6,087 bases of DNA, taken from assembly GCA_945292135.1 (NCBI GenBank), contig CALYRA010000098.1, positions 1 to 6,087 of the forward strand, written 5' to 3'. Both the position numbers and the translations under genes were made by a program. The notes beneath the pieces were generated by a model. That model saw only the letters and a program-made list of their open reading frames with translations, was not told where the DNA came from and ran no database searches. The DNA comes from an uncultured Dysgonomonas sp. (GTDB lineage Bacteria; Bacteroidota; Bacteroidia; Bacteroidales; Dysgonomonadaceae). Shown here piece after piece: positions 1-6,087 of this stretch (within the stretch, counting starts at the first letter, position 1; every line of letters starts with the position of its first letter).

Positions 1-41
1 GCGGATTCTGGAAAAGGTATGAGCAAATATAATGAATAAGA

Positions 42-401
42 ATTTTTAAGTCATTATTCTCAGAATCAATTGCTAAAAATATTGCCGTATCCCAAGAGCG
101 TATTGATAGGAGAAGATTAGGAGAATCTTACCCGATAATAAATATTGATGACTTTGTTTCTGGCTTGCCTTTCTCTTATAATACTGTGGTTGGGCAAAAA
201 AGATAAGGAATAAGTCAAGGACAAAGACAACGCTTGTTGATAGCTCGTGTTGTATATAAAGACACCCGATTTATATTTTTAGATGAAGCTCCTAATGCAT
301 TAGTAGCTAATAATGAAAAGCTAATTTTGGATAATCTAAACAAATTTTATAAAGGCAAAATCGGATATTGTAGCTTTTAGTATACTGTTACTCATTGATT
401 T
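42..401 (+). pseudogene. Decayed ATP-binding domain of a peptidase-type (bacteriocin/peptide) ABC exporter
   Basis: Read in the frame starting at base 3, the sequence shows the C-terminal half of an ABC ATPase domain. A stretch like SIAKNIAVSQERID is typical of the post-Q-loop region of C39-peptidase exporters. It is followed by DFVSGLPFSYNTVVGQ, the signature GISQGQRQR (this family often has SQGQ instead of SGGQ), and Walker B FIFLDEAPNAL. After LNKFYKGK the similarity fades, but V-T-H followed by TGA at 387-398 fits the H-loop VAHR with CGA changed to TGA. In-frame stops at 30-32, 33-35, 204-206, 378-380 and 396-398 show it is dead. No Walker A could be confirmed near base 1; the rest of the gene is either outside the window or lost. 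Intact relatives export peptides across the inner membrane after leader cleavage. The family call is confident, the substrate unknown. Confidence 0.8.
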
Positions 402-417
402 ATTTTTAAAGCTTGGT

Positions 418-1059
418 TCAATATCGACGAAGTAAACCAATCACAAGCGCAAGATTAAAAACTTCTGATTTATGTATTCTAAAGTCTTTGTATAAATCGT
501 TGTTCTCAGATTTACAAAGGATATATTCGTCGTCGTCAAATATACGTTTGACGATAACCCCCTGGCTTGTATCTAAAACATGAAACCTCCCCCACTGCAC
601 AAAGTTCACAGGCTTTATATACAAACAAGCGAGCTCGTCACCCGAATGAAATTCAGGTAACATACTATCACCCTTCGCAATAATTGTAAAATCGTATTTG
701 GCAAATGCTTTAATAACTGGAATTTGTTCGCAATTTTCGATTGTAATACCATCAAGCGCGACCGATAAAGAGCCCGCCGCCGCATCGTATGGTATTCTCG
801 GGCGGGTTTCTTCAATTTCCGTTTCCTCTTTCTTTTTGGCAATGGGCTGTCTTTCTTCTTTAATCATTTTTGCAGCATCATTAAAAAACCACTCAAGATT
901 AAGGTCATGATAATTATCTATTATTATTTTAAGCTTATCGACTCCCAAACTACTGCCACTATCTAAAAAACCAACTGAAAACCCAGTTTTTAGATAAAAC
1001 TTATTCTTGGTAATGCCTTTGTATTCAAGATATTTAAGTAATTTTTGTTTGTCGGTCAT
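418..1059 (-). CDS. S24-family phage repressor (CI/LexA-like, self-cleaving)
   Basis: The 213-aa protein has the two-domain layout of phage CI-type repressors. Residues about 5-60 form an atypical HTH of the Bacteroidota kind (KNKFYLKTGFSVGFLD, then DKLKIIIDNYHDLNLEWFF). A charged Lys/Glu linker (66-88) follows, then an S24 peptidase domain. The expected serine is Ser132 in GDSML and the lysine Lys171 in IVKRIF, spaced as in LexA/UmuD. A95-G96 in the segment DAAAG, just before the peptidase domain, is a good candidate self-cleavage site. All key residues are present, so the protein is probably functional. The ATG at 1059 is chosen because the HTH starts right after it; no clear Shine-Dalgarno is seen, as is usual in Bacteroidota. 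It diverges from the fibre/hydrolase gene across 99 bases and probably binds there, repressing that gene and perhaps itself until DNA damage. The DNA target and SOS link are inferred. Confidence 0.88.
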   Translation of the reverse strand: MTDKQKLLKYLEYKGITKNKFYLKTGFSVGFLDSGSSLGVDKLKIIIDNYHDLNLEWFFNDAAKMIKEERQPIAKKKEETEIEETRPRIPYDAAAGSLSVALDGITIENCEQIPVIKAFAKYDFTIIAKGDSMLPEFHSGDELACLYIKPVNFVQWGRFHVLDTSQGVIVKRIFDDDEYILCKSENNDLYKDFRIHKSEVFNLALVIGLLRRY

Positions 1060-1158: not shown

Positions 1159-3864
1159 ATGGAAGCAAAAGAAAATGAGGGCTTGACACCCGAGCAAATC
1201 GAATCGTCTCAGATCATAAAATTTTCGGATGGTAAAGAGCCGAACAGTAACGATTTTTCAAATCTTATCGACTCATTCGAGCATAAGAGCATACCTATCG
1301 CACAATCACGTATTTTAGATCTTGCCCAGTCTTTTGATAAAAAAGCCGATAAGACACAAGTCGAGGCGTTTGCGGTCGGTTTAATATACAAACCAGCCAT
1401 GCCTAATGTGGCGGCGCTTACATCTACTTACCCTAATGCGCAAAAAGGATGGGCGGCAAAAGTAATGGATCAGACCGACCCGAACGGCAATGCTTATATT
1501 TACCAGTTTGACGGCTTGGGGTGGAATAATACAGGTCTTATTGTCTTTCCTCATAATGTGGCTACAAAAGAAGAGCTAAACGACGTCTCGAATGATGTCG
1601 ATGAGATAAAAAACGAGCTCGGTTTTGATGAATCGACGCCCTGCGAAATTATACCTTATTCGGTGGGTAATTCCGAGACTAATAATTCAAAACAATGGTT
1701 TTATTTAAACCCGTCTATATTAGTTGGTAAAACGGTAACAGGGGTAAAGGTAAACTTTAAAAAAGCGGGTACATTTACCGTTGTTTTTGGTAAAGGATTA
1801 AATACATCGTCTTATGCTGAAATAACAAGGCAAACATTTACGGTTGTCACTGGAGAGCAGATTTTAAACCTTACATCACCTTTTATGTTCGGCGTTGATC
1901 ATTGTATCGGGTTTAACGATTATTCAAATACCGCAACATGGTTATATGCGTCTAAAACTACATCAAATCCGATTGCTGGGGGCTGGGTTGGTCGTGCATC
2001 AAATGGTAGCTGGTCAAGTAAAACCGAAGATGGCGACTTGTGCATCGGTGTGCTTGTTTCTGCTGGCTTAGGTAGTAACTATGTGAAAAAAATAAACTTA
2101 CAATCTGATTATTCGAGTAGTAAAGAGTCTGTCCCGACAAGTTTCTTGCTTAATCGGCAACATGGCGACCTTTACGGTGTTTATGACAATGACGGGGGAG
2201 CTTATGATGAAATAATACCTTACGGCGAGGGAAATAAATGGTCCAATGGTTTAGATATAAACCCGACAAATAACGGTCAATGGTTTTACGAGAATCAGAA
2301 TATTTTAAGGGGTAAAAAAATTAGCGGTGTGAAAGCTAAATTTGATAAAGCGGGTACATTCTCAATACTAATCGGTAAGAATATAGGTACAAATAATTTT
2401 ACCTATACTGTTGCACATGCTTTAAGTGTTGTCGAGGGTGTCAATGAATTAGTATTTAGCCCGATTACGCTTAACGCTGACGAAAGTCTCGGATTTGTTT
2501 CACCAACTGACAATGTTCGTTTTTGGTTCTCAGAAGCAAACAAGCCAAATTCGATTGGTGGCGGTTTTCGGGGGGGCAAAAGCACGGCTTTAGTAAAAGC
2601 CGATTTGTGTATAGGTGTGTTTGTTGGTGAGCCGCTAAATGAATTAATACCATTTTCGGGGCTTACTGATAGAGACTCAGTATTGCCAGCAGGTCAATGG
2701 TTTTATGAGAATCACTCGGTTATGAATGGCAAATTCATAAACAAACTTAAGATTAATATTTCGACGGCTGGAACAATGTCGGTTCTATTTGCAAAAAACG
2801 TCGGATCGTCAGGTTATACATACACAAAACAAGTATTTAATGTAAGTGTCGGTATCAATGAATTATCAATTTTAAGACAATTAGAGAGCAACGAAACAGT
2901 AGGTTTTTTTGATTATGACGATACCGCTAAATTTAAATTTGGCGGCGTTAATTCGGGAGATAAAAAAAATAATATCGGCGGTGGTTTTATATCAATATCA
3001 TCAAACGGCGCATGGCGATCAAGCGTTTTACTATATGATTTATCAATCGGAGTTTTCACGGGTGGTAATGGCTCTGCGATAAGCGGCGATATAAATAAAA
3101 TTAACGCCCGCTTAAAACATTTAGAAGAAGCAATACAAGCCGTCAATCCCGATTATACGGGTTTGTTACGAGATAAAACATTTTCGGTACTGGGTGACAG
3201 TATATCAACATATCAAGGCATTATACCGAGCGGACACCCTTACAAATACCCGAATTTTGGTATTACCGACTGGCGGCAAACATGGTGGGGCTTGCTGACT
3301 ACTGACAAATACGGCATGAAACTCGTTGCAAATGCCTCGTGGTCGGGTGGTACAGTTACGGATATGGTTGACGGATCTTTGCCTAATTATATATCAAAGC
3401 TCGGTGTCAATCCCGATTATATTTTTCTTTTTGGTGGCACAAATGATTTCGGGCAATGTAAAACGATCGGCGACTTAAATTTTTATAATACTTTTGATCG
3501 TAAATTGTTTATTCAAGCCGTATGTTATCAGATTGAGAAAATACAAGAGACTTACACAAATGCAAAGATCGTTTATCTGACGCCAATGCAAAGAAATTAT
3601 GCGGCTCAATCGAATAGTAAAAACCCGAATAAGGTTAGAGATTCAAAACCGTTCTTGTATGAGTATTGCGATGCAATAAAGATGGTTTGCAAGATTTATG
3701 GCGTACAAGTAGTTGATATGTTTAATTGTGGTATCCACTTTTATAATATGAAATATTATATGCCTGATAATTTACACCCAAATGTTCGAGGTATGGAAGT
3801 TATCGCAAATTATGTATATAAAAATGTCTCTTTGTATGCAGAACGAAATAGTCTTATTAAATAG
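1159..3864 (+). CDS. Phage tail-fibre-like protein with three tandem modules and a C-terminal SGNH/GDSL hydrolase
   Basis: The 901-aa protein has no signal peptide or membrane segment. Residues 1-155 resemble N-termini of Bacteroidota phage tail fibres (FSNLIDSFEHKS, then AQKGWAAKVMD and YIYQFDGLGWNNTG), ending in a short heptad-like stretch (about 137-155). Three related modules of about 140 aa follow (163-301, 351-490, 495-635). A short coiled-coil-like linker (645-661, KINARLKHLEEAIQ) leads into an SGNH hydrolase. Its blocks are visible: GDSIS with nucleophile Ser681, Gly730/731 in WSGG, GGTND with Asn762, and DNLHP with Asp870 and His873. The likely role is a particle-borne or released esterase that deacylates surface glycans of the host; the substrate is unknown. 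The ATG at 1159 opens directly into the fibre-like N-terminus. G+C is higher than in the flanks. No tail, chaperone or other phage gene adjoins it, so how it would reach a virion is unclear. Confidence 0.82.
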   Translation: MEAKENEGLTPEQIESSQIIKFSDGKEPNSNDFSNLIDSFEHKSIPIAQSRILDLAQSFDKKADKTQVEAFAVGLIYKPAMPNVAALTSTYPNAQKGWAAKVMDQTDPNGNAYIYQFDGLGWNNTGLIVFPHNVATKEELNDVSNDVDEIKNELGFDESTPCEIIPYSVGNSETNNSKQWFYLNPSILVGKTVTGVKVNFKKAGTFTVVFGKGLNTSSYAEITRQTFTVVTGEQILNLTSPFMFGVDHCIGFNDYSNTATWLYASKTTSNPIAGGWVGRASNGSWSSKTEDGDLCIGVLVSAGLGSNYVKKINLQSDYSSSKESVPTSFLLNRQHGDLYGVYDNDGGAYDEIIPYGEGNKWSNGLDINPTNNGQWFYENQNILRGKKISGVKAKFDKAGTFSILIGKNIGTNNFTYTVAHALSVVEGVNELVFSPITLNADESLGFVSPTDNVRFWFSEANKPNSIGGGFRGGKSTALVKADLCIGVFVGEPLNELIPFSGLTDRDSVLPAGQWFYENHSVMNGKFINKLKINISTAGTMSVLFAKNVGSSGYTYTKQVFNVSVGINELSILRQLESNETVGFFDYDDTAKFKFGGVNSGDKKNNIGGGFISISSNGAWRSSVLLYDLSIGVFTGGNGSAISGDINKINARLKHLEEAIQAVNPDYTGLLRDKTFSVLGDSISTYQGIIPSGHPYKYPNFGITDWRQTWWGLLTTDKYGMKLVANASWSGGTVTDMVDGSLPNYISKLGVNPDYIFLFGGTNDFGQCKTIGDLNFYNTFDRKLFIQAVCYQIEKIQETYTNAKIVYLTPMQRNYAAQSNSKNPNKVRDSKPFLYEYCDAIKMVCKIYGVQVVDMFNCGIHFYNMKYYMPDNLHPNVRGMEVIANYVYKNVSLYAERNSLIK
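1645..3063 (+). repeat. Three tandem protein-level repeats within the fibre/hydrolase gene
   Basis: The modules start at codons 163, 351 and 495 and end at about 301, 490 and 635. Each opens with E-[IL]-IP-[YF], then QWFY near +17 to +26, followed by GK-x(2,3)-[GN]-[VL]-K, KAGTF/TAGTM, [FI]GK or FAKN, an ELVF/ILNL-like strand, GF/GV near a Trp or Phe strand, IGGG[FW] (IAGGW in module 1), and the closing DL[CS]IGV. Modules 2 and 3 nearly abut, while modules 1 and 2 are separated by a 49-residue linker. The alternating beta-strand pattern suggests jelly-roll or carbohydrate-binding-like sandwiches. The fold is inferred; the repetition is seen directly. The DNA copies are clearly diverged, so the duplication is not recent. 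Confidence 0.8.
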
Positions 3865-3960: not shown

Positions 3961-4348
3961 GAAAAACTGGTTTTTCATTTTCGCGATTATATATGATTAC
4001 AACTTTACAATTTATATATATCCAATAATAATGAAGCCAATAAATTACAATTTACAATTACTAATCTTCATTTGAATGGTTTATGATTGACTGCGAAAGA
4101 TAATTTCTGTACATCCTAAAATGAGAATTTTCTGAAGTGAAGTTATAATAGTATTGGTTAATATCCGTTTTAACTCTTTCATATCTGTATCTTATGATTT
4201 TATAATAGCATCATCCCATGGTGCTGCCATTAGTATCTAATATTAAATAAAAATCATTTTTTCAACCCCATTTCTTTCTGCCTCTCTATTCTTAATAAAA
4301 TAAATTACTCCCTATTGGGATTTTGTTAAACAATTAAATTATAAATAT
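3961..4348. other. AT-rich gene-free stretch between fibre/hydrolase gene and integrase remnant
   Basis: No convincing gene is seen on either strand. It opens with a perfect 7-bp hairpin, GAAAAAC-TG-GTTTTTC (3961-3976), and holds two copies of TTACAATTTA near 4004 and 4045. TCCCATGGTG at 4214-4223 recurs at 5213-5222 in the same orientation. On the - strand a reading of about 47 codons runs between TGA near 4205 and TAG near 4062, rich in Tyr, Arg and Asn, and continues across the TGA in the same frame for about 20 codons. It resembles no family I recognise and may be residue of another decayed gene. The right border of the transferred repressor-fibre pair should lie in or just before this stretch, but no flanking direct repeat was found. 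Confidence 0.4.
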
Positions 4349-4803
4349 GTGAGAAAGAGTTTAGAATTAACGGCCACAGAAGTGATCGATCTGTTGATCG
4401 AAAAGTTTAGCATGCAAGTAAGAGTTAAGAATGGACATCAGCTCATCAGTTCAGGGAATGCCAAAGACTTTCAAATGTTGAAAAATTCATTGGTAAAATT
4501 TGTATCAGATAAATACAAGAAGCCATTCACTTACCTTTCAGTTTTGTGATATAGACAACACTTTTTTGATAGATTACATTTCTTATCTTGAAAAACGAGC
4601 GGCCAATCTGGGTACAAAAGGAGCCATATCCAATCGTCTGAAAAAACTACAGGCAGTCTTCAACTATGTCCTTGAAATAGGAATTCAGGGTGCTGATTCT
4701 TCCATATTCCATAGATGTATCAGAACAAATGAAAGTACTGGAAGTAATACCTTTTATCCTTTCTGCTGATATAATATATAAGATAGAAAACATTGTCGCT
4801 CTG
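4349..4803 (+). pseudogene. Tyrosine recombinase (integrase) remnant in three frames
   Basis: Three consecutive frames together spell the core-binding (SAM-like) domain of Bacteroidota site-specific integrases. The first (4349 to about 4528) reads LELTATEVIDLLIEK, then GHQLISSGNAKDFQMLKNSL and DKYKKPF. The second (from about 4530) reads CDIDNTFLIDYISYLEKR, then TKGAISNRLKKLQAVFNY and GADSSIF. The third (from about 4726) reads MKVLEVIPFILSADIIYKIENI. The breaks fall near 4528-4545 and 4715-4730. The N-terminal arm-binding domain (about 100 aa in relatives) is absent upstream, and the catalytic domain with its Arg-His-Arg-Tyr residues is missing: similarity stops at about 4795-4803, where the opposite-strand HTH gene also breaks. 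It cannot be active. GTG at 4349 is simply the first in-frame start-like codon. The family call is confident; the parent element is unknown. Confidence 0.82.
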
Positions 4804-5051
4804 CTTATACTTAATAATAATGCTGCTTTTGACACAGTAAAATATTCCCGATATTTAAGAATAGATGAGTCGGTCGAATTAGGTTTACTTAATGTCTGTT
4901 TATTGTTACTATTTATTTTAAACTCTCTTTGCTTTTCCTTATATGCTTTAGATGCATACTTCAAAGAGCAGTATTTCGTTTTTGTCGTTTTAGCAATAAA
5001 AGTGCTATTACAGAACAGACATAATCTTTCAATTTCTATATTACTACTCAT
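4647..5051 (-). pseudogene. Truncated zinc-finger/helix-turn-helix (excisionase-like) protein
   Basis: The 134-codon frame is genuine only for residues 1 to about 88 (5051 down to about 4788). It opens with a small zinc-ribbon: C11-LF-C14, then YC28S. The expected fourth ligand is Tyr32 (TAT) instead of Cys, a one-base change from TGT. A polar linker (about 40-65) leads to the start of an excisionase-type HTH (FTVSKAALLLSISRATMF, 71-88), where the usual LLGIS has become LLSIS. After residue 88 the frame runs antisense through the integrase remnant to a stop at 4647, so the last 46 residues are not native. Intact relatives are small DNA-binding proteins of Bacteroidota mobile elements, thought to act as excision or accessory factors. 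The loss of both HTH end and zinc ligand makes function unlikely. The ATG at 5049-5051 starts at the family's usual MSSNIEIER-like N-terminus. Confidence 0.7.
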
Positions 5052-5079
5052 TAGTATTATTATTGGTAATAATTTGTCC

Positions 5080-5182
5080 TTATATTAATTTCTCGAAATC
5101 CTTTCCTGATGCGAATTTTATATCGTTGGCGATAATTTGCTCAATAATTTGTCCCTAAATAATGCAAGCTTTCACAGATATC
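5080..5182 (-). pseudogene. Diverged, broken second copy of the mnmE 3' end
   Basis: Read on the - strand, 5182 down to 5153 gives DICESLHYLG, against DIRECMHYLG in the intact mnmE. After a frameshift (restart at 5154), it gives GQIIEQIIANDIKFASGK, against GQISTDEILGNIFGKFCIGK. By hand count 24 of 29 bases match between 5154-5182 and 5482-5510. Compared with mnmE it lacks about 17 bases in total, mostly the GEIT segment, and has FASGK in place of the near-invariant FCIGK that ends MnmE proteins. It then runs seven codons further to TAA at 5080-5082. Similarity ends sharply at 5182. Duplicated gene tails like this are left by integrative elements that use a gene's 3' end as attachment site, and the excisionase-like gene starts 28 bases further on. 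Chance similarity within a repeat-rich patch is the main alternative. Confidence 0.5.
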
Positions 5183-5197
5183 GTTATTTGTCCCTAA
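5147..5197. repeat. Direct 12-base repeats ATTTGTCCCTAA with flanking variants
   Basis: ATTTGTCCCTAA occurs exactly at 5147-5158 and 5186-5197, 39 bases apart, in the same orientation. A shorter relative ATTTGTCC lies at 5072-5079, and TGTCCC at 5211-5216. They sit upstream of the excisionase-like gene on its strand and overlap the broken mnmE tail. Such spaced short repeats fit integrase/excisionase arm-type sites or the repeated ends of an insertion sequence; the sequence alone does not decide which. Confidence 0.5.
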
Positions 5198-5287
5198 TTT
5201 TGACTAATCATGTCCCATGGTGTCTCAACTATGCATTATTTAGAATATGTAATTTTAAGTAAGATAGTCGGAGGAAAAATGGAGGAG

Positions 5288-5344
5288 AAAAAAACAACAA
5301 AAAACACTAACCAATGCTAAACATTGATTAGTGTCTATTTTTTT
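5288..5344 (-). terminator. Bidirectional intrinsic terminator downstream of mnmE
   Basis: A 13-bp stem, 5304-5316 with 5322-5334, encloses the 5-base loop CTAAA. On the - strand its single irregular position is a G-U wobble, and the stem is followed by T6 and, after GTTG, a run of seven T's (complement of 5288-5303), a strong terminator 75 bases past the mnmE stop. On the + strand that position is a C-A mismatch, but seven T's (5338-5344) follow, so weaker termination from the left is also likely. Confidence 0.85.
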
Positions 5345-5408
5345 ATAACACTAAAAATGGTATTATATTGACCGATTCTATTATTTGTTAATCGTTGATA
5401 ATCAATAA

Positions 5409-6087
5409 TTATTTTCCGATACAGAATTTCCCAAAGATATTACCTAAAATCTCATCGGTAGATATTTGTCCTGTAATTTCTCCTAAATAATGCATGCATT
5501 CGCGTATATCCTGGGATAGAAAATCACCTGATATATTTAAATCTAAACCTTCATTTATTCTCTGAATAGCTTTTAAAGCTTTTTCAAGAGCTTCATAATG
5601 ACGAAGGTTTGTGATGATTATATCTTGTCTCCCAAAATCCGGAATGTTCGCGACTTCTATTAATTTATCTTCAAGCTTGTCAATCCCGTCATTGTATTTT
5701 GCGGATATAAATATTCGATCAGGTAATTCATCTTTTAAAAGATTATCTTTTATGAATTTTCTATCTGCTGATACCGCATCTATTTTGTTGAATATCAATA
5801 TCACTTTTTTGTCATTTAACAAAGGTAAAATCTTATTTGCCAAAGAAAGAATATGTTCATTGTCCGTTTCAGCATCCACTAACCACAAAACTATATTTGC
5901 TTGTTCTAATTTTTTGAATGTACGCTCTATGCCAATATTTTCAATTTCATCTTGAGTTTCACGTATTCCGGCAGTGTCTATTAATCGGAATGTAATCCCT
6001 TTGATGTTGATGGTATCTTCAATTACATCACGCGTTGTACCATGTATATCTGATACAATTGCTTTTTCTTCATGTAATAGCAAATTG
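5409..6087 (-). CDS. mnmE: tRNA uridine-5-carboxymethylaminomethyl modification GTPase MnmE (C-terminal part)
   Basis: The frame runs off the window end at 6087, so only about the last 225 residues of a usual ~450-465 are seen; the N-terminal tetrahydrofolate-binding domain and the P-loop (G1) lie outside. Counting from Met/Leu at 6083, visible motifs are G2 GTTRD (15-19), G3 DTAG (36-39) followed by REtqDEIE with the conserved catalytic-type Glu48 (E. coli Glu282 by my alignment), G4 NKID, G5 SAK, a C-terminal helical region, and the terminal FCIGK with its invariant Cys. With MnmG, MnmE adds the cmnm5 group to U34 of certain tRNAs in the cytoplasm. All residues visible are intact. The gene ends at TAA 5409-5411 and has its own terminator. 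It is the only clear housekeeping gene here, and its 3' end appears duplicated at 5080-5182. Confidence 0.96.
   Translation of the reverse strand, partial: NLLLHEEKAIVSDIHGTTRDVIEDTINIKGITFRLIDTAGIRETQDEIENIGIERTFKKLEQANIVLWLVDAETDNEHILSLANKILPLLNDKKVILIFNKIDAVSADRKFIKDNLLKDELPDRIFISAKYNDGIDKLEDKLIEVANIPDFGRQDIIITNLRHYEALEKALKAIQRINEGLDLNISGDFLSQDIRECMHYLGEITGQISTDEILGNIFGKFCIGK

What the first reader, a model, noticed from the sequence alone, without database searches (positions are those of the whole stretch)
5080..5510. Second, diverged mnmE tail suggests elements integrate at the mnmE 3' end
Bases 5154-5182 match 5482-5510 within mnmE at 24 of 29 positions, in the mnmE coding sense, and protein similarity continues to the terminal GK after a frameshift. 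The match breaks abruptly at 5182, as expected at a crossover point. Known precedent: Salmonella genomic island 1 integrates at the 3' end of trmE/thdF, the enterobacterial mnmE. A similar habit in Bacteroidota would be notable. Two models fit: 5080-5182 is a displaced old tail, or it is the tail carried by an older element whose excisionase-like gene follows at 5051, with a second element later inserted between it and mnmE.
Basis: partly seen in the sequence, partly recalled or inferred. Interest (0 to 1): 0.75.

Follow-up and report, generated by a model that had tools for sequence, protein, structure and literature searches.

The report
Mobile-element landing site at mnmE end
In this relative of the bacterium Dysgonomonas, the tRNA-modification gene mnmE is followed by what is likely the decayed start of an inserted DNA element; related bacteria carry elements joined at exactly the gene's last 18 letters, so this gene end is likely a standing docking site for mobile DNA across Bacteroidales, as it is known to be for Salmonella genomic island 1.

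Summary
In detail: 5154-5182 matches mnmE at 24/29, and a profile of mnmE tails finds 5120-5183 (14.3 bits, E 8.8e-5). The wider guess is strongly supported. In Dysgonomonadaceae, 22 of 63 genomes with enough contig have a tyrosine integrase within 2.5 kb after mnmE, in the same direction (about 0.7% expected). Two genomes show elements bounded by an 18-bp repeat, the codons FCIGK-stop, and one empty site resumes exactly at that repeat. Most mnmE-adjacent integrases cluster on a tree. Salmonella genomic island 1 uses the same 18-bp site.

The detailed reading changes. The likely junction is at the mnmE stop (5409-5426), not at 5182. Bases 5269-5412 are 85% identical to the left end of an element in G006, although the two mnmE genes are only 68% identical. 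A truncated excisionase-like gene follows, overlapped by a 580-bp dispersed repeat. The second tail (about 5093-5183) sits inside this wreck; two similar relics lie near element ends in relatives. How the relic arose is unresolved, because the mapped elements share only the 18-bp core with mnmE, not a 100-bp tail.

The parts
5409..6087 (-). mnmE, C-terminal part (225 codons in the window plus stop), intact reading frame ending FCIGK-stop
   Evidence: ORF list; MnmE_helical and MMR_HSR1 Pfam hits
5409..5426 (-). likely attL core: last 18 bp of mnmE, TTCTGTATCGGAAAATAA (FCIGK-stop)
   Evidence: Position equals the 18-bp direct repeat that bounds elements in G077 and G080; inferred for this window
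5184..5408 (-). likely left end of a decayed integrative element; 5269-5412 is 84.8% identical to the left end of the G006 element, which has an HTH gene and an integrase
   Evidence: alignment and blastn to G006, HTH and integrase in G006; mnmE itself is 68.1% identical
5288..5344 (-). hairpin with T run, terminator-like, inside the left end
   Evidence: RNA fold of the reverse complement of 5270-5350, -20.2 kcal/mol; aligned with the G006 left end
5093..5183 (-). degenerate second copy of an mnmE tail; 5120-5183 by profile, 5093-5119 by eye only
4650..5051 (-). truncated excisionase-like HTH gene; most alignments to intact relatives cover residues 1 to about 88-108 (weakest and longest: 1-131)
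   Evidence: tblastn to L068, L060, L019 at 39-49% identity
4228..4806 (+). 580-bp dispersed repeat carrying a frameshifted tyrosine-integrase fragment (sub-threshold Phage_int_SAM_5 hit); it overlaps the HTH ORF from about its residue 82 on

Best explanation
The window shows mnmE followed by the likely decayed left end of an integrative element that would have inserted by tyrosine-integrase recombination in the last 18 bp of mnmE, the site at which elements in related Bacteroidales are found. Shown: in relatives the last 18 bp of mnmE (FCIGK-stop) is the direct repeat at both element ends, mnmE stays intact, and the integrase (alone or behind an excisionase-like HTH gene) lies just downstream in the same direction. 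Inferred: the element's integrase recombines its own 18-bp copy with mnmE, so the gene keeps its conserved last codons and gains the element's 3' flank, including a terminator. Repeated insertion and deletion at one spot then likely built up the wreckage seen here: a left-end remnant, a degenerate second mnmE tail, a cut excisionase-like gene and a 580-bp repeat.
For: Window: 5269-5412 is 84.8% identical over 145 bp to the G006 left end, while the mnmE genes are 68.1% identical over 675 bp; G006 has HTH and integrase next. Family: 22 of 63 genomes with at least 2.4 kb downstream have a co-directional integrase of about 220 aa or more starting within 2.5 kb; 3 more have fragments; 12 were set aside for short contigs or, in one, an mnmE end cut off by the contig. 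Background: 360 PF00589 matches in 17 genomes, about one per 187 kb. Repeats: G077 18/18 at +18,262; G080 18/19 at +12,052. Empty site: DNA after the G080 right core matches G086 straight after mnmE at 87.2% over 1,330 bp, starting at the core. Order level: 14 of 50 genomes with at least 1.5 kb downstream (one a fragment), plus one on a shorter contig; 60 taken. Viral contigs: of 105 pattern loci, 12 have an integrase downstream, 6 of those without an mnmE tail, as attP should look. G486: the mnmE contig ends in the stop codon and two contigs share its last 141 bp, then diverge there. Tree: 6 label changes against 25.0 shuffled.
Against: No right end, intact integrase or second exact core is present in the window; the host is a 71.6%-complete MAG with a 6-kb contig. 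38 of 63 family genomes, the window's own among them, show no integrase in the stretch. G081's right core is inexact, and G003, G010 and G002 gave no clear right repeat. On the trees the mnmE label is not one clade: G024's mnmE-adjacent integrase fell among the others and was then left out for its long branch, and integrases lying elsewhere (G117:C67, G011:C14, G021:C35) sit inside the mnmE groups; G021:C35 is nearly identical to mnmE ones on a contig where no mnmE was found, though a clean core precedes it. The profile of the relic covers only the middle of the tail, and the 18-bp model does not predict a 90-bp duplicate. Integration itself is inferred; nothing was tested at the bench.
Confidence: 0.85

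Rival explanations
1. The second tail at 5093-5183 is the old native tail, displaced by an element whose crossover lay about 100 bp upstream of the stop and which therefore carried a longer replacement tail.
For: G030:C25 has an orphan tail of the last 58 bp of mnmE (26.2 bits) followed, by eye, by sequence like the mnmE flank of G033, so displaced tails longer than 18 bp seem to exist. The window relic and those in G021/ZJ279 and G036 start near the same point, about 100 bp before the stop.
Against: The repeats mapped exactly here are 18-19 bp at the stop, and the 6 attP-like viral contigs carry no further mnmE tail by profile. The relic is not followed by an intact core or a native flank but by an HTH gene about 40 bp on.
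Confidence: 0.4
2. The mnmE-like segment was captured into the end of an element (ectopic recombination or aberrant excision) and then travelled with it, so it marks an element end rather than a displaced host tail.
For: In ZJ279 the relic lies between the end of an ORF and a clean core that starts an HTH-plus-integrase element; in G036 it overlaps the end of an ORF.
Against: Downstream stretches of G077, G080 and G029 that hold right cores gave no tail-like hit above 10 bits.
Confidence: 0.3
3. The second tail is a chance resemblance, helped by AT-rich sequence and by a ribosome-binding-site-like AGGRNAAAT motif that occurs both in the mnmE tail and before the HTH genes.
For: Left ends of the elements contain AGGGAGAAATAA-type motifs, and 5068-5085 and 5143-5160 are a short repeat with that motif.
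Against: The best-matching 29 bp (GATAT...CATTATTTAGG) lies mostly outside the motif; scores exceed the random and reversed controls.
Confidence: 0.08
4. 5184-5408 is simply the native mnmE 3' flank and no element ever inserted here.
For: Downstream flanks with terminators are normal; the window shows no complete integrase at this spot.
Against: The flank is more conserved with G006 than the gene is, and in G006 it leads into an excisionase-like gene and integrase; that gene is a relative of the truncated gene in the window.
Confidence: 0.07

Closest known systems
[quoted passage not shown]
   Same: Same place and length of attachment site: the last 18 bp of mnmE. The SGI1 repeat printed in PMC11237444 is TTCTGTATTGGTAAGTAA (passage); here TTYTGTATCGGAAAGTAA. 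Tyrosine integrase at the mnmE end; tandem arrays known for SGI1 (PMC2297512, passages).
   Different: Different phylum; no SGI1 backbone gene was looked for; many elements here put an excisionase-like multi-HTH gene between mnmE and the integrase; by eye, contents include conjugation-like genes (L062) and terminase-like genes (L064).
IntCTnDOT-type integrases of Bacteroidota (CTnDOT, NBU1)
   Same: Domain order Arm-DNA-bind_5, Phage_int_SAM_5, Phage_integrase in three integrases next to mnmE or an mnmE tail. PMC8138268 places CTnDOT, NBU1 and SGI1 integrases in one subgroup (passages).
   Different: NBU1 targets the 3' end of a tRNA-Leu gene (PMC5704250 table passage); none of the Bacteroidota elements in the table passages that I saw is at mnmE.
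Islands at dusA
   Same: Same strategy of using a conserved gene end as integration site (PMC4482086, abstract start in search listing).
   Different: Another gene, and its 5' end.

Membership tests
mnmE 3'-end (SGI1-like) site users | attachment core = last 18 bp of mnmE | tested here: met
   Relatives: G077 18/18, G080 18/19. For the window only one end is present: the gene ends in such a core and the G006-like flank begins there, so there it is inferred
mnmE 3'-end (SGI1-like) site users | direct repeats at both ends and a matching empty site | tested here: met
   Relatives: G080 against G086; not testable for the window's own element
mnmE 3'-end (SGI1-like) site users | own tyrosine integrase next to the core | tested here: inconclusive
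   Met in relatives; in the window the excisionase-like gene is truncated and no complete integrase remains, only a SAM5 fragment inside a dispersed repeat
SGI1 family proper | SGI1 backbone and mobilisation by IncA/IncC plasmids | not tested
   No SGI1 backbone gene was looked for
SGI1 family proper | IntSGI1 kinship | tested here: inconclusive
   An integrase beside a Gammaproteobacteria-like mnmE (L422, core TTCTGTATTGGGAAGTAA) joins an mnmE group at 93/90 support (not starred), 47% identity to G010's; IntSGI1 itself was not fetched
IntCTnDOT-type integrases | Arm-DNA-bind_5 + SAM5 + catalytic domain | tested here: met
   Three relatives; the window has no such complete gene
excisionase family DNA-binding proteins (TIGR01764 / HTH_17) | HTH_17 / excise domain | tested here: inconclusive
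   Intact relative L068: HTH_17 2.2e-33, TIGR01764 70.4 bits over a cut-off of 28.8; window ORF: no such hit of its own, only 41% identity to L068 over residues 1-92

The most novel reading that the evidence does not exclude
The codons for the conserved FCIGK end of MnmE are a docking site served by one old, cross-phylum lineage of tyrosine integrases: it runs through Bacteroidales prophages, conjugative elements and islands, and the Gammaproteobacterial mnmE islands, SGI1 included, are an offshoot of it. In Bacteroidales the site has been hit so often that arrays of dead elements and duplicated mnmE tails, as in this window, are left as a fossil record.
Probability: 0.45. Interest if true: 0.65.

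Novelty: new variant of a known kind. Interest (0 to 1): 0.5.

Why it matters
mnmE is widely conserved (its tail was matched in 345 of 393 genomes of the order), so a shared docking site at its end gives mobile elements a target that works across families and perhaps phyla. It offers a marker for finding integrative elements in Bacteroidales, may explain why assemblies break just after mnmE, and makes testable whether SGI1's integrase comes from a Bacteroidota lineage. The excisionase-like multi-HTH gene next to the core is a candidate directionality factor.

Tried and rejected
Element-carried 41-codon tails: the first whole-genome searches listed stand-alone mnmE tails of 34-48 codons. Three sets checked proved to be contig ends that overlap the mnmE contig (G067 177 bp with 1 mismatch; G109 with the mnmE contig ending inside the core, by eye; G486 141 bp), so they are not evidence for long carried tails. 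G031 and G110 have tails unlike their own mnmE and may come from other strains (by eye). G020 and G045 were not resolved; G020's tail contig carries an HTH gene and integrase pieces but is not in my counts.

A G078 profile hit of 15.1 bits was set aside: the alignment has a bias of 29.8 and only its core end looks real. The G029 hit at +19,530 (83% of 42 bp) is not interpreted. G003, G010 and G002 gave no convincing right repeat. The idea that left ends in general resemble the mnmE tail was not borne out: apart from the window no left end reached 8 bits. mnmE hits in the phage collection were in unannotated records among those listed and were not used as counts. Six rows with long branches were left out of the second tree (mv_L244, mn_G024 and four 'other' rows); the first tree held them (5 changes against 25.2).

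Full report
OBSERVATION. The window is G000:C98:1-6087 of a 2.0-Mb, 71.6%-complete MAG. mnmE lies on the minus strand and ends at 5409. The direct repeat 5154-5182 / 5482-5510 is 24/29. A nucleotide profile of 37 mnmE tails finds the true tail and, second, 5183-5120 with 14.3 bits, E 8.8e-5. In 794 kb of fetched loci (some overlapping) the weak hits are two orphan tails (L061 53.1, L069 28.6 bits), the window (14.3), L073 (13.5), a stretch inside G003's own mnmE (10.8) and a core-only hit on L069 (7.7); reversed sequence reaches 6.2. With 74 tails and 1.54 Mb the window scores 15.9, against 8.9 at best reversed. Local alignment to the own tail scores 38, against at most 30 in 4,000 random pieces. 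The second tail is therefore real, though its last third is too degenerate for the profile.

WHAT LIES AROUND IT. From 5412 down to 5269 the window is 84.8% identical over 145 bp to the stretch after mnmE in G006, whereas mnmE itself is 68.1% identical over 675 bp. Binned, identity already rises to 78-88% over the last 160 bp of the gene, stays at 80-88% down to 5281 and then falls to about 50%. In G006 that stretch leads into an excisionase-like gene and a tyrosine integrase. In the 13 elements aligned the HTH gene starts 246-274 bp after the last mnmE sense base; in the window it starts 361 bp after, with the tail relic in the extra stretch (and its coordinates). The window's HTH ORF is 39-49% identical to L060, L068 and L019 over residues 1 to about 90; some alignments run to residue 103-131 at lower identity. 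From about residue 82 on it lies inside a 580-bp dispersed repeat (4228-4806), with copies at 79% on G000:C66, 74% in G011 and 72% in G004 out of 25 genomes searched. The repeat holds a frameshifted integrase fragment. That the repeat cut the HTH gene is inferred.

THE HABIT IN RELATIVES. 81 of 101 family genomes had an mnmE tail match. I examined 75 of these; G005, G007, G020, G069, G095 and G120 were not examined. 63 of the 75 have at least 2.4 kb after the stop; 12 were set aside. 22 of 63 have a co-directional integrase of about 220 aa or more starting within 2.5 kb, 3 more have fragments, and 38 (the window's genome among them) have none by my profile; no opposite-strand hit was printed (per-genome list). 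17 genomes hold 360 PF00589 matches, about one per 187 kb, so roughly 0.7% would be expected for one strand of a 2.5-kb stretch (my arithmetic). Across the order, 60 regions were taken by me from the capped list (345 of 393 genomes matched), high scores first and passing over many hits close to a contig end, so this is not a random sample. 50 have at least 1.5 kb and 14 of these have an integrase (one a fragment), plus G177 on a shorter contig.

THE CORE. In the one-contig genome G077 the last 18 bp of mnmE, TTCTGTATCGGAAAGTAA, recur exactly 18.3 kb downstream; in G080 18 of 19 recur at 12.05 kb. DNA after the G080 right copy matches G086 directly after mnmE at 87.2% over 1,330 bp, beginning at the core, and G110:C95 at 83% over 232 bp. 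No integrase was found in 6 kb after mnmE in G086, which thus shows the empty site. G081 has an inexact right core at about 21.9 kb. G029 repeats the 91 bp from inside the core onward at 91.2%, 17.36 kb downstream, likely the remnant of an older element, since ZJ279 has an HTH-plus-integrase element at the matching place. Of 105 viral-contig loci holding the core pattern, 12 have an integrase downstream and 9 an mnmE tail upstream, 6 both; the 6 with an integrase but no tail look like attP. In G486 the mnmE contig stops in the stop codon, and two contigs share its last 141 bp and then diverge there; one has an integrase piece.

INTEGRASES. Three representatives have Arm-DNA-bind_5, SAM5 and the catalytic domain. 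On a tree of 77 (45 labelled mnmE, 28 others, 4 phage records; 6 long-branch rows left out) the mnmE label needs 6 changes, against 25.0 when shuffled; a 100/100 branch holds all 45 with 7 others and the 4 phage records. Some of the 45 are viral-contig rows labelled by the core alone. In the first tree, G024's mnmE-adjacent integrase fell among the others. The others were mostly chosen as further hits of two mnmE integrases plus three of the own genome, so sampling is not even. One phage-collection contig labelled Salmonella phage has a Gammaproteobacteria-like mnmE end (my reading by recall), core TTCTGTATTGGGAAGTAA and an integrase that joins one mnmE group at 93/90, 47% identical to G010's. 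IntSGI1 itself was not tested.

THE RELIC. Similar degenerate tails occur in ZJ279 (L073 / G021:C35), ending about 100 bp before a clean core that opens an HTH-plus-integrase element, and in G036 about 2.2 kb after mnmE, overlapping the end of an ORF. G030:C25 has a 58-bp tail followed, by eye, by mnmE-flank-like sequence. These fit wreckage and accretion at the site. They do not decide between a displaced host tail and a tail captured by an element, and the mapped elements share only 18 bp with mnmE. I give the displaced-tail model 0.4.

HOW IT LIKELY WORKS. Shown by sequence in relatives: the core lies in the codons FCIGK-stop, the gene stays intact, and the element's integrase, alone or behind the HTH gene, lies downstream in the same direction. 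Inferred: the integrase recombines its core copy with that of mnmE; the HTH protein, whose intact relative has four HTH_17 stretches and matches the excisionase model, would steer excision; the terminator-like hairpin would end mnmE transcription.

KNOWN WORK. [quoted passage not shown] PMC8138268 (passages) groups SGI1's integrase with CTnDOT and NBU1. The mobilizable-element review PMC5704250 (passages) lists trmE only for Gammaproteobacteria in what I saw. Searches that combined mnmE, trmE, thdF or 'tRNA modification GTPase' with Bacteroidota terms listed no paper whose title or abstract start describes this site in Bacteroidota; apart from the passages named, those papers were seen as listings only. 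Subscription papers and island databases such as TIGER/Islander (PMC12424338, listing) were not searchable here, so the site may be recorded there.

Noticed in passing
window 4228-4806: 580-bp dispersed repeat with a frameshifted integrase fragment; second copy on G000:C66 (79%), others in G011:C3 (74%) and G004:C2 (72%).
   Followed up: partly
window 418-1059 and 1159-3864: A Peptidase_S24 protein next to a 901-aa protein with a C-terminal GDSL hydrolase domain and repeated GQWFYEN-type segments; possibly a prophage remnant.
   Followed up: no
window 1-380: By eye, a broken ABC-transporter-like fragment (GQRQRLLIAR ... FLDEAP).
   Followed up: no
L068 9814-10740: The excisionase-like protein between mnmE and the integrase has four HTH_17 stretches behind an N-terminal Cys-rich part, which seems unusual for a directionality factor.
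   Followed up: partly
L062 and L064: By eye, genes after these mnmE-tail-linked integrases include conjugation-like proteins (L062) and terminase-like proteins (L064), so several kinds of element seem to use the site.
   Followed up: no
L073 / G021:C35 and G021:C16: Dysgonomonas sp. ZJ279 may have two different elements in tandem at mnmE, split over two contigs.
   Followed up: partly
G029 18179-18269 of the oriented stretch: 91-bp copy of an element left end with no HTH or integrase behind it, a likely deletion remnant.
   Followed up: partly
and contigs: Several contigs end just after the mnmE stop (5 of 60 within 200 bp), which fits assembly forks at this site.
   Followed up: partly
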